Below, piece by piece: positions 25,216 to 30,378 of a stretch of 35,051 nucleotides of DNA. Origin of the DNA: Gemmatimonadota bacterium (lineage in GTDB: Bacteria > Gemmatimonadota > Gemmatimonadetes > Gemmatimonadales > GWC2-71-9); NCBI GenBank assembly GCA_003251175.1, contig QKHC01000011.1, forward strand, positions 1 to 35,051, in the 5' to 3' direction. The position numbers were made by a program, and so were the translations under genes. The notes beneath the pieces are model-generated. The model did not search any database. It was not told where the DNA came from and saw only the letters and a list, made by a program, of their open reading frames with translations. Every line of letters starts with the position of its first letter. Positions within the stretch are counted from its first letter, which is position 1.

Positions 25216-26919
25216 ATGCCGATGCGGACGTGCGTGCTGGCGGCCGGTTTGCTGGCCGTCGGTCTCGTAGTTGCCGGTTGTGCCTTTCCCGATGACCTCA
25301 GTCAGGGCGTCTACGTCGTCGTGTATCCGTCCACCACGCTCGTGGCCGACGGCGTCCTGGCCGAAGGGGAGACCGAATCGCTCGCGGCGAAGGCGTTTCG
25401 CCAGGTCAGCAACATCCGCGATAGCGGCAAGGTGGACGACCAGGAAATCACCAACGTCGATTTCTTCTGGACCAGCGGCGATGAAGCGTTCGCCACGGTG
25501 CGAGGCGGTTCCGGTGGCAGCGCGGAAGTCACGGGTGTGGACCCGGGGTTCGTGACGATCACGGCACGTGCGGCGTCGTTCCAGGGAGCCGATGCGGGCT
25601 CGATCGGGTTGCGCGTCGCCGGTCTCTATGCCGTGGACAGCGTGCGTCCGCCCACCGTGCGCTATGGGGAGCGTGTCACACTGTTCGGCGTGCGCATGCA
25701 CCTCACTCTCGGGGCCGTGCTGGGTGGGGAGGATCTGATCCCGGCGCCGTTCACGTTCCAGGGCAGTCTCGATGGGCTGGGTCGGGTGGAGCTGTGGGTG
25801 CCGCCGCGGGCCACGAGCGATCGCCTGGCGTTCATCGGCCCCGGCGTCTTCGGCGTCAGCGACTCGGTGTCGGTGATCGAGGAGGATCTGTTCGAGCCTG
25901 ACTCCGCGCGCCCGGCGCGCATTGACATCAACGGGCCGGGCGGGCCGCCGACGATCGGCGGGTCACCCACGCTGTTCTTCAACCCCGCCCTGTTTTACGA
26001 GCCGGTCGAGTTCGGCCAGTCGGATGTGGACTGGTTCCGATTCGTCCGCGCCGATACGACGCAGGCGGTCACGCTGATACTCAACTCCACGGTGCTCAAC
26101 GACACCGCCTTCTCGTACCTGAGCGATACCCTCGCATTCGATTCGGTGAGCGGCGGCTATTTCGTCGTGCCGGGATCGTGGATTCTGTCGCCGGGCTTTT
26201 ACGTGTGCAACAACCGCTTCTTCTTCCCCGCCGAGGAGCGACCGGTCTCCACGATCATCGCGTTGCGCAACCTGCCCGATACTGCCATGCAGCTGCTGTC
26301 ATTCTACGCGCGCGACGGCCGCTATGAGCTCGGCGCGATCGCGGGATACCAGACCGTCGACCGGCGCATCGGCCCCGACCGGTTCGAGGAGAACGACCTG
26401 TGGTGCCGCTTCGCCGACCGCAACTTCGCGAACCCCGCGCTGCAGATCACGATCTCGCCAACGATCTCCTTCGAGGACTCGACGCTCACCATCGACAATC
26501 CGCACGATATCGACTGGTACAAGTTCCGCGTCACCGTGAGTGACACCGTGACGGTCCAGCTCCGCCCCCGTCCCTTGGCGGCGGGCGTCGATCCGTCCAA
26601 CGTCGATCTCTACGTGATGCGGGCATCCGATTTCAGCTTCGTGGGCTCGGATGTGACGGCTGGCTCGTTCGCGAAGGTCAAGGCGTTTCTCGCTGCGGGC
26701 GACTACTACGTCGGTGTCGTCGACCGTATCGGTGTGCCGACGCGCTACTCGATGTGCATCAAGAAGTCCATCGAGTGCTCGCCACCAGGCGCGGCGCCGC
26801 CGCGGGCGGCGGGAGCCGCAGCATCGCGCGGCGCCACGGCGCCGGCGTATGATCCCACCGTGCCCCCGCCCGGGTGGGGCACCAGCGGCCCGAGGATGCT
26901 GCCATCACCGCGCCGGTAG
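25216..26919 (+). CDS. Lipoprotein with Ig-like and PPC-type domains
   Basis: This 567-residue protein is of unknown function. The signal peptide ends in VVAGC, a clear lipobox with C22 as the lipidated residue, so it is anchored to the inner or outer membrane. Residues about 30-135 read like a BIG2-type Ig domain (VDFFWTSGDEAFATVRGG, VTGVDPGFVTITARA). A second strand-rich domain follows (VRYGERVTLFGVRMHL, like an IPT/TIG). Two PPC-like (pre-peptidase C-terminal) modules follow, each with a D(V/I)DW(F/Y)(R/K)F start. The second ends KAFLAAGDYYVGVVDRIG. The tail is proline- and alanine-rich. The 3' end overlaps the kinase gene by 46 bp. ATG 25216 or 25222 could be used; no Shine-Dalgarno site is visible. 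It probably acts as a surface-exposed adhesion or binding protein. Confidence 0.7.
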   Translation: MPMRTCVLAAGLLAVGLVVAGCAFPDDLSQGVYVVVYPSTTLVADGVLAEGETESLAAKAFRQVSNIRDSGKVDDQEITNVDFFWTSGDEAFATVRGGSGGSAEVTGVDPGFVTITARAASFQGADAGSIGLRVAGLYAVDSVRPPTVRYGERVTLFGVRMHLTLGAVLGGEDLIPAPFTFQGSLDGLGRVELWVPPRATSDRLAFIGPGVFGVSDSVSVIEEDLFEPDSARPARIDINGPGGPPTIGGSPTLFFNPALFYEPVEFGQSDVDWFRFVRADTTQAVTLILNSTVLNDTAFSYLSDTLAFDSVSGGYFVVPGSWILSPGFYVCNNRFFFPAEERPVSTIIALRNLPDTAMQLLSFYARDGRYELGAIAGYQTVDRRIGPDRFEENDLWCRFADRNFANPALQITISPTISFEDSTLTIDNPHDIDWYKFRVTVSDTVTVQLRPRPLAAGVDPSNVDLYVMRASDFSFVGSDVTAGSFAKVKAFLAAGDYYVGVVDRIGVPTRYSMCIKKSIECSPPGAAPPRAAGAAASRGATAPAYDPTVPPPGWGTSGPRMLPSPRR

Positions 26920-29731: not shown

Positions 29732-30378
29732 GGGCCGGGCTGGCGCTCCTGGGGCTCGCCGCGACGACGCTGCCGCTGCCGCTCACGGCGCAGCGGTTCG
29801 TCATCGGGGTCGCTGGGGCGGGGGGTGACTATCGCGAAGTGTCTAACGACCTGCGGTATCGCGTGTCTGGCGTCGGCGCGATGGCGATGTTCGCCGCGGG
29901 ACGCGTCGCCGCCGAAGTGTCGGCGACGGGCCTCACGTATACGGCCGACGGGCCGAACGCCACACGGGACTTCAAGGCGGTGCAGTTCGACGGATATCTG
30001 CGCGTGCTCCTGGTACGCGGAGTGAGCGTCGAGGCGGGGCTGACCAACCGCCAGGTCGATGCTGAGTTCGAGTACCTGGCGCAGTCGGCCGCCGCGGTGC
30101 GGCTGGGGCTCTACTCCGCGGTGGATCTGGGGCGCGACGCCGGGGCGCAGGTGCGCGTCAACTACCTGGCCGGCGCGCGATTCTCCGGTGGCGGCACCGC
30201 GCCGCTGGCGGTCGACGTGGGGCTCGGCTTCTACTACGGCGTCGCGAACGGGCGGCTGCGTCTCACCGGCGAGTCCCAGTTCCAACGCTTCAACCGCACG
30301 ATCGATCCCGGCGGCGTCAAGCGTGACGTGCCGATCCAGCAGATCATCGGCAAACTGGGATTCGCGGTGGTGTTGTAG
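29728..30378 (+). CDS. Outer-membrane beta-barrel-like protein
   Basis: This 216-residue exported protein has a signal peptide ending LPLTAQ and then repeated strand patterns (RFVIGVAGAGGDY, VGAMAMFAAGRVAAEVSA, AVQFDGYLRVLLVRGVSVEAG, AVDVGLGFYYGVANGRLRL). It ends with IIGKLGFAVVL, a final strand typical of small outer-membrane barrels. The GTG at 29728 overlaps the TPR gene's stop as GTGA and has GGGGGAGGTGGG just upstream. As the last gene in a run with the kinase and TPR protein, it would place one partner of that module in the outer membrane. A hairpin at 30408-30439 follows. The function is unknown. Confidence 0.72.
   Translation: MRAGLALLGLAATTLPLPLTAQRFVIGVAGAGGDYREVSNDLRYRVSGVGAMAMFAAGRVAAEVSATGLTYTADGPNATRDFKAVQFDGYLRVLLVRGVSVEAGLTNRQVDAEFEYLAQSAAAVRLGLYSAVDLGRDAGAQVRVNYLAGARFSGGGTAPLAVDVGLGFYYGVANGRLRLTGESQFQRFNRTIDPGGVKRDVPIQQIIGKLGFAVVL

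What the first reader, a model, noticed from the sequence alone, without database searches (positions are those of the whole stretch)
25216..30378. Candidate trans-envelope Ser/Thr kinase module
Seen: four consecutive overlapping genes encode a lipoprotein (Ig, PPC), a single-pass kinase with an extracytoplasmic BIG2-PEGA region, a signal-peptide TPR/Ig protein with two C-terminal membrane segments, and a small outer-membrane-like barrel. Overlaps are 46, 4 and 4 bp. Known: PknB-type kinases often sense through extracytoplasmic domains. Inference: the four proteins form a chain from cytoplasm to cell surface, with the kinase either reading envelope state or being recruited by the barrel/TPR pair. 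I know of no described system with this gene set.
Basis: partly seen in the sequence, partly recalled or inferred. Interest (0 to 1): 0.6.

Follow-up and report, generated by a model that had tools for sequence, protein, structure and literature searches.

The report
Conserved envelope-spanning kinase gene module
Four overlapping genes encode a surface lipoprotein, a membrane kinase, a periplasmic linker and an outer-membrane barrel; they are inherited as a unit in many Gemmatimonadota bacteria, in several versions, some with a dead kinase or none, which suggests an undescribed machine that links the cell surface to the cytoplasm.

Summary
All four genes lie where stated. Across 395 Gemmatimonadota genomes, the window's version (clade I) keeps the order lipoprotein-kinase-TPR-barrel. 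All 33 genomes with the clade-I TPR also have the lipoprotein; only 2 of the other 362 do. The TPR protein defines a family of about 110 loci. Roughly 70 of 84 loci with enough sequence have a kinase-type gene directly upstream, and 92 of 100 strong barrel hits lie directly downstream of a TPR gene, usually with a 4-base overlap. The window's own genome carries a second, very divergent copy. One deep clade carries predicted pseudokinases under purifying selection. Five loci of one genus lack the kinase domain, keep TM-PEGA, and fuse TPR to barrel. So the envelope part is the conserved core and the kinase an optional cytoplasmic output. Most likely this is a trans-envelope surface-to-cytoplasm module; complex formation, the signal and its direction are inferred. 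The papers searched describe no such system. Distribution outside the phylum is barely tested.

The parts
25216..26919 (+). Lipoprotein (567 aa): lipobox LVVAGC, Big_2-like domain, IPT/TIG-like region (by eye), PPC-like region(s)
   Evidence: occurs in 35 of 395 phylum genomes, including all 33 with the clade-I TPR
26874..28694 (+). Ser/Thr kinase (606 aa), intact catalytic motifs, single TM segment, N-terminus in cytoplasm
26925..26987 (+). Zinc ribbon (aa 18-38) of the kinase; Zn_Ribbon_1 matches 26 of 35 intact-kinase family members
27063..27818 (+). Kinase domain (aa 64-315)
28008..28076 (+). Transmembrane segment GLGITLFFLIVTGGGAAAWWFLL
   Evidence: sequence
28161..28391 (+). Big_2 domain, not conserved in relatives
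28491..28685 (+). PEGA domain, the conserved ectodomain; kept in pseudokinase and kinase-less versions
28691..29731 (+). TPR/FlgD-Ig protein (346 aa): signal peptide, TPR, Ig domain, two hydrophobic segments (29432-29572), Arg-rich C-terminal helix
29728..30378 (+). Outer-membrane beta-barrel (216 aa), signal peptide, 10 strands in the model

Best explanation
A trans-envelope surface-to-cytoplasm module. Shown by sequence and comparison: the lipoprotein, TM-PEGA protein, TPR/Ig protein and barrel are co-inherited as one gene unit with overlapping reading frames, with a kinase as the cytoplasmic part of the window's version. Inferred: (1) the lipidated Ig/PPC protein sits at the outer membrane next to the 10-strand barrel; (2) the TPR/Ig protein, periplasmic and membrane-anchored, docks on the barrel through its TPR part; (3) it contacts the PEGA ectodomain of the kinase; (4) a change at the surface (loss, binding or load of the Ig protein or barrel) alters dimerisation of the kinase, which then phosphorylates cytoplasmic targets. 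In paralogues with a predicted pseudokinase, the same path would end in recruitment or scaffolding rather than phosphorylation.
For: Gene order kept in clade I: 24 loci with all four genes, most of the rest cut by contig ends. In G075, from another family of the same class, the genes are rearranged (TPR-barrel-PPC protein-lipoprotein-kinase) but stay clustered on one strand. Lipoprotein in 33 of 33 clade-I genomes versus 2 of 362 others (relatedness not corrected). 92 of 100 strong barrel hits directly downstream of a TPR gene, and 5 of the other 8 start at a contig end. 4-base overlaps throughout. A divergent second module in the same genome, with a small lipoprotein, zinc-ribbon/PEGA kinase, TPR and barrel. 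Natural TPR-barrel fusions in 5 loci: gene fusion often marks physical partners (established inference). PEGA in 33 of 35 kinases and 17 of 18 pseudokinases. Kinase catalytic residues intact in every complete clade-I kinase.
Against: No interaction, localisation, phosphorylation or phenotype data. No co-folding was possible. In the fused form the Ig and hairpin part of the TPR protein is absent, so contact with PEGA cannot depend on that part there. The Arg-rich tail after the hairpin (median net charge +4) fits poorly with a periplasmic C-terminus, so the topology of the linker is unsettled. Paralogues without a working kinase show that phosphorylation is not needed for every version.
Confidence: 0.5

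Rival explanations
1. A surface-protein display or anchoring station. The barrel and TPR/Ig protein export, fold or anchor the cognate Ig-fold protein encoded upstream; TM-PEGA ties the station to the inner membrane; the kinase, where active, only regulates or reports on it.
For: The upstream gene is the variable part: Big_2/PPC lipoprotein in clade I, lipoprotein of about 130 aa in IIa, Invasin_D3/Big_1 arrays in open reading frames of 1,215 and 1,875 aa in IIb, BACON or Big_3_5 proteins beside kinase-less TPR-barrel pairs. Predicted pseudokinases and kinase-less loci keep the envelope parts.
Against: No known translocation or sorting motif was recognised in the partners; the barrel is small (10 strands, about 215 aa), probably too narrow to export folded protein; all complete clade-I kinases look active.
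Confidence: 0.3
2. An envelope-integrity sensor like PASTA kinases: PEGA binds a wall or carbohydrate ligand directly, and the other three genes are envelope proteins controlled by the kinase rather than parts of its sensor.
For: Single-pass kinase with ectodomain; best NCBIfam match is the PASTA kinase model (320.6 bits, kinase region only).
Against: Score below the model cut-off of 450 and no PASTA repeat; the partners are kept where the kinase domain is predicted dead or absent, so they are not merely its regulon.
Confidence: 0.12
3. A chance or purely transcriptional cluster without a shared function.
For: Bacterial operons sometimes hold unrelated genes; flanking genes differ between lineages.
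Against: Order and overlaps are kept across three deep paralogue clades, with gene fusion and co-inheritance.
Confidence: 0.04

Closest known systems
PASTA Ser/Thr kinases (PknB/Stk1 family, NF033483)
   Same: Hanks-type cytoplasmic kinase, one TM segment, extracytoplasmic domain
   Different: No PASTA repeats; score 320.6 against cut-off 450; zinc ribbon at the N-terminus; linked to an outer-membrane barrel and a periplasmic linker
Described bacterial pseudokinase families (ActPs1-3, GLW, CP1, DYD, DLHK; PMC12599244)
   Same: The IIb relatives are predicted pseudokinases and membrane-bound
   Different: IIb mostly keeps the beta3 Lys and the Asp of DFG, changes HRD to HGx, has zinc ribbon and PEGA, and lies in Gemmatimonadota; the review text does not mention PEGA, zinc ribbon, TPR or Gemmatimonadota.
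MviN pseudokinase / FhaA (Mycobacterium, PMC12599244)
   Same: A membrane pseudokinase domain that works by recruitment
   Different: No barrel, TPR or PEGA partner is described there
FecA-FecR type cell-surface signalling (own knowledge)
   Same: Outer-membrane barrel passes a signal through a periplasmic domain of an inner-membrane regulator
   Different: That barrel is a large TonB-dependent receptor with a plug and the output is a sigma factor; here a 216-aa 10-strand barrel and a kinase
OpcA and omptin 10-strand barrels
   Same: Fold of the barrel
   Different: About 9% identity; fold resemblance only
FlgD Ig domain and TssQ-type TPR lipoproteins
   Same: The two folds within the linker protein
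   Different: Below the family cut-offs; signal peptide plus hydrophobic hairpin; no flagellar or T6SS context seen

Membership tests
Hanks-type Ser/Thr kinase (PF00069) | Score above cut-off with Lys, HRD Asp and DFG Asp | tested here: met
   163.3 bits against 31.7; VAIK, HRDVKPANI, DFGIS
PASTA kinase Stk1/PknB (NF033483) | Score at or above the curated cut-off | tested here: not met
   320.6 against 450
PASTA kinase Stk1/PknB (NF033483) | Extracytoplasmic PASTA repeats | tested here: not met
   Ectodomain is Big_2 + PEGA
Described bacterial pseudokinase families (for the IIb relatives, not the window kinase) | Family motifs, such as GLW for HRD with loss of beta3 Lys, DYD with beta3 Arg, DLHK/CP1 without TM | tested here: inconclusive
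   Motifs read differ from those described; profiles of those families not available
TssQ family (NF038027) | Score at or above the cut-off | tested here: not met
   24.5 against 65
FlgD | FlgD_ig domain over the Pfam cut-off | tested here: not met
   20.0 against 27; the family profile does hit FlgD chains at 1.4e-7, a shared fold
TonB-dependent surface signalling (FecA/FecR) | Large TonB-dependent barrel with plug domain | tested here: not met
   216 aa, 10 strands in the model
Lipoprotein with PPC domains | Lipobox and PPC over the Pfam cut-off | tested here: inconclusive
   Lipobox present; PPC 21.2 against 25.9 in the window, but 37.1 in the G075 relative

The most novel reading that the evidence does not exclude
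A new class of envelope-spanning machine, so far seen in Gemmatimonadota, in which an outer-membrane barrel and a periplasmic TPR/Ig linker couple a variable Ig-fold surface protein to an inner-membrane PEGA protein whose cytoplasmic end is an exchangeable output: active kinase, pseudokinase, or nothing. It would be a bacterial Ser/Thr kinase receptor that reaches the outer membrane.
Probability: 0.4. Interest if true: 0.85.

Novelty: new variant of a known kind. Interest (0 to 1): 0.62.

Why it matters
Gemmatimonadota are abundant soil bacteria with few cultured species, and the window's 2.2-Mb draft (56% complete) already holds about 50 kinase domains without a known purpose. How Ser/Thr kinases of double-membrane bacteria sense events beyond the inner membrane is largely open. 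This module gives a concrete set of partners to test, a natural series (active kinase, predicted pseudokinase, no kinase) that separates the structural from the catalytic role, and a natural TPR-barrel fusion that predicts a specific contact. The IIb clade also appears to add a conserved, selected group of predicted bacterial pseudokinases with motifs unlike those described in the review read here.

Tried and rejected
Literature: 7 searches found no description of a PEGA kinase with TPR and barrel partners; 'PEGA domain' and 'kinase' occur together in only 7 papers, none on this by title. Only open-licence PMC papers were searchable. Distribution outside the phylum: the all-phyla scan uses exact short words and found three Gemmatimonadota loci only, the plasmid search found nothing; neither excludes distant relatives elsewhere. 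First calls with a wrong start coordinate failed and were repeated. The motif script miscalled some loci: L046 (wrong frame), L085 and L142 (PEGA without kinase), corrected by inspection; L037, L039 and L127 keep the HxD Asp but lose other motifs and were kept apart as doubtful pseudokinases. The BIG2-PEGA ectodomain as a defining trait was rejected: Big_2 occurs in no other scanned family member. Recurrent neighbours: MoxR-DUF58 genes lie upstream in 14 clade-I loci but not in the window, so they are context, not part of the module. Foldseek on the linker gave only generic Ig-type hits.

Full report
WHAT IS THERE. The window is contig C52 of a draft genome of 2.2 Mb, 56% complete, with about 50 kinase domains; its named relatives are titled Gemmatimonadota, Gemmatimonadetes or Gemmatimonadales. 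The four genes and their overlaps are exactly as reported. The lipoprotein has a clear lipobox; its Big_2 and PPC matches are weak. The third protein has a signal peptide, TPR, a FlgD-like Ig domain, two hydrophobic segments and an Arg-rich tail helix. The fourth is a small barrel, 10 strands in the model, with OpcA as best fold match. Both AlphaFold models rest on 3 or 4 sequences only.

IT IS A CONSERVED UNIT. The TPR protein was sought in 395 genomes of the phylum and the neighbourhoods were read. In clade I, the window's group, 24 loci hold all four genes in the same order and most others are cut by contig ends. The lipoprotein is in all 33 genomes with a clade-I TPR and in 2 of 362 others (Fisher p about 4e-46, not corrected for relatedness). 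In G075, from another family of the same class, the order is changed but the genes remain together on one strand. Barrel hits over 60 bits: 92 of 100 lie directly downstream of a TPR gene, and 5 of the other 8 start at a contig end. TPR-barrel junctions overlap by 4 bases in 76 of 84 cases, kinase-TPR junctions in 70 of 90. Of 84 TPR loci with room on both sides, about 70 have a kinase-type gene directly upstream (three script assignments corrected). These counts include close relatives and are not independent observations.

IT IS A FAMILY OF MODULES. A tree of 97 TPR proteins (quick method) gives clade I (31 rows), IIa (22) and IIb (26, support 93), plus distant rows. The window's own genome has a IIa module at G000:C28 (L034): lipoprotein of about 140 aa, zinc-ribbon/PEGA kinase, TPR, barrel, all overlapping by 4 bases. 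Several genomes hold clades I, IIa and IIb together.

PSEUDOKINASES AND KINASE-LESS FORMS. IIb kinases have lost the Gly loop and changed HRD to HGx in most members, but keep the zinc ribbon in most, TM and PEGA (17 of 18), and mostly keep the beta3 Lys and the Asp of DFG. Three members (L037, L039, L127) keep an HxD Asp and are doubtful. The tree fits one main loss within the IIb side, with kinases that look active as its neighbours. Pairwise dN/dS of IIb kinase genes is 0.23-0.36, about the same as their TPR partners (0.25-0.33); close active pairs have 0.10-0.29. So they are maintained, not decaying. In five loci of one genus (L086, L090, L093, L141, L142) the kinase domain is absent, a short TM-PEGA protein remains, and the TPR domain is fused through a proline-rich linker to the barrel in one reading frame. 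Other loci (L045, L071, L139) have TPR and barrel with no kinase recognised; in L045 and L071 an Ig or BACON protein lies upstream.

THE UPSTREAM PROTEIN VARIES. Clade I has a 520-590 aa Big_2/PPC lipoprotein, IIa mostly a lipoprotein of 124-142 aa, IIb either short lipoproteins or arrays of Invasin_D3/Big_1 domains (open frames of 1,215 and 1,875 aa). This looks like the surface-facing, changeable component.

HOW IT MOST LIKELY WORKS. The conserved core is Ig protein + TM-PEGA + TPR + barrel; the kinase is an output that can be lost. I favour a chain surface Ig protein/barrel - TPR linker - PEGA - kinase that passes information inward (0.5). The main rival is a display or anchoring station for the Ig protein with the kinase as regulator (0.3). 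The fusion favours TPR-barrel contact. The topology of the linker is unsettled: two hydrophobic segments after a signal peptide put the tail in the periplasm, but the tail is basic.

KNOWN OR NEW. The window kinase is a Hanks-type kinase but not a PASTA kinase by score or domain. The IIb motifs do not match those described for the known pseudokinase families, as far as the text of one review allows. No paper found describes the gene set. All functional statements are inference; distribution outside the phylum was tested only weakly.

Noticed in passing
window 24813-25004: A 63-aa stand-alone HisKA (phospho-acceptor) ORF without ATPase domain, 33.9 bits against cut-off 26.9, directly after a 93-aa ORF (24530-24811) of unknown function.
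   Followed up: no
window 23308-24462: M50 family membrane metallopeptidase upstream of the module.
   Followed up: no
L101 1695-4831 and 13 further clade-I loci: MoxR-type ATPase and DUF58/VWA genes sit directly upstream of the module in 14 clade-I loci, not in the window.
   Followed up: partly
L114 3295-8040: A second kinase gene upstream of the lipoprotein: kinase-lipoprotein-kinase-TPR-barrel.
   Followed up: no
L144 6359-7606: A 415-aa ORF that carries an interior barrel hit behind an Ig-like N-terminal part (by eye), near a TonB-receptor-like gene, with no TPR hit beside it.
   Followed up: partly
L130-L135: Distant TPR homologues (about 85-120 bits), several next to active-looking kinases without a recognised zinc ribbon; they may be a further clade.
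   Followed up: partly
window 30446-30521: tRNA-Arg (CCG) on the minus strand just downstream of the barrel gene.
   Followed up: no
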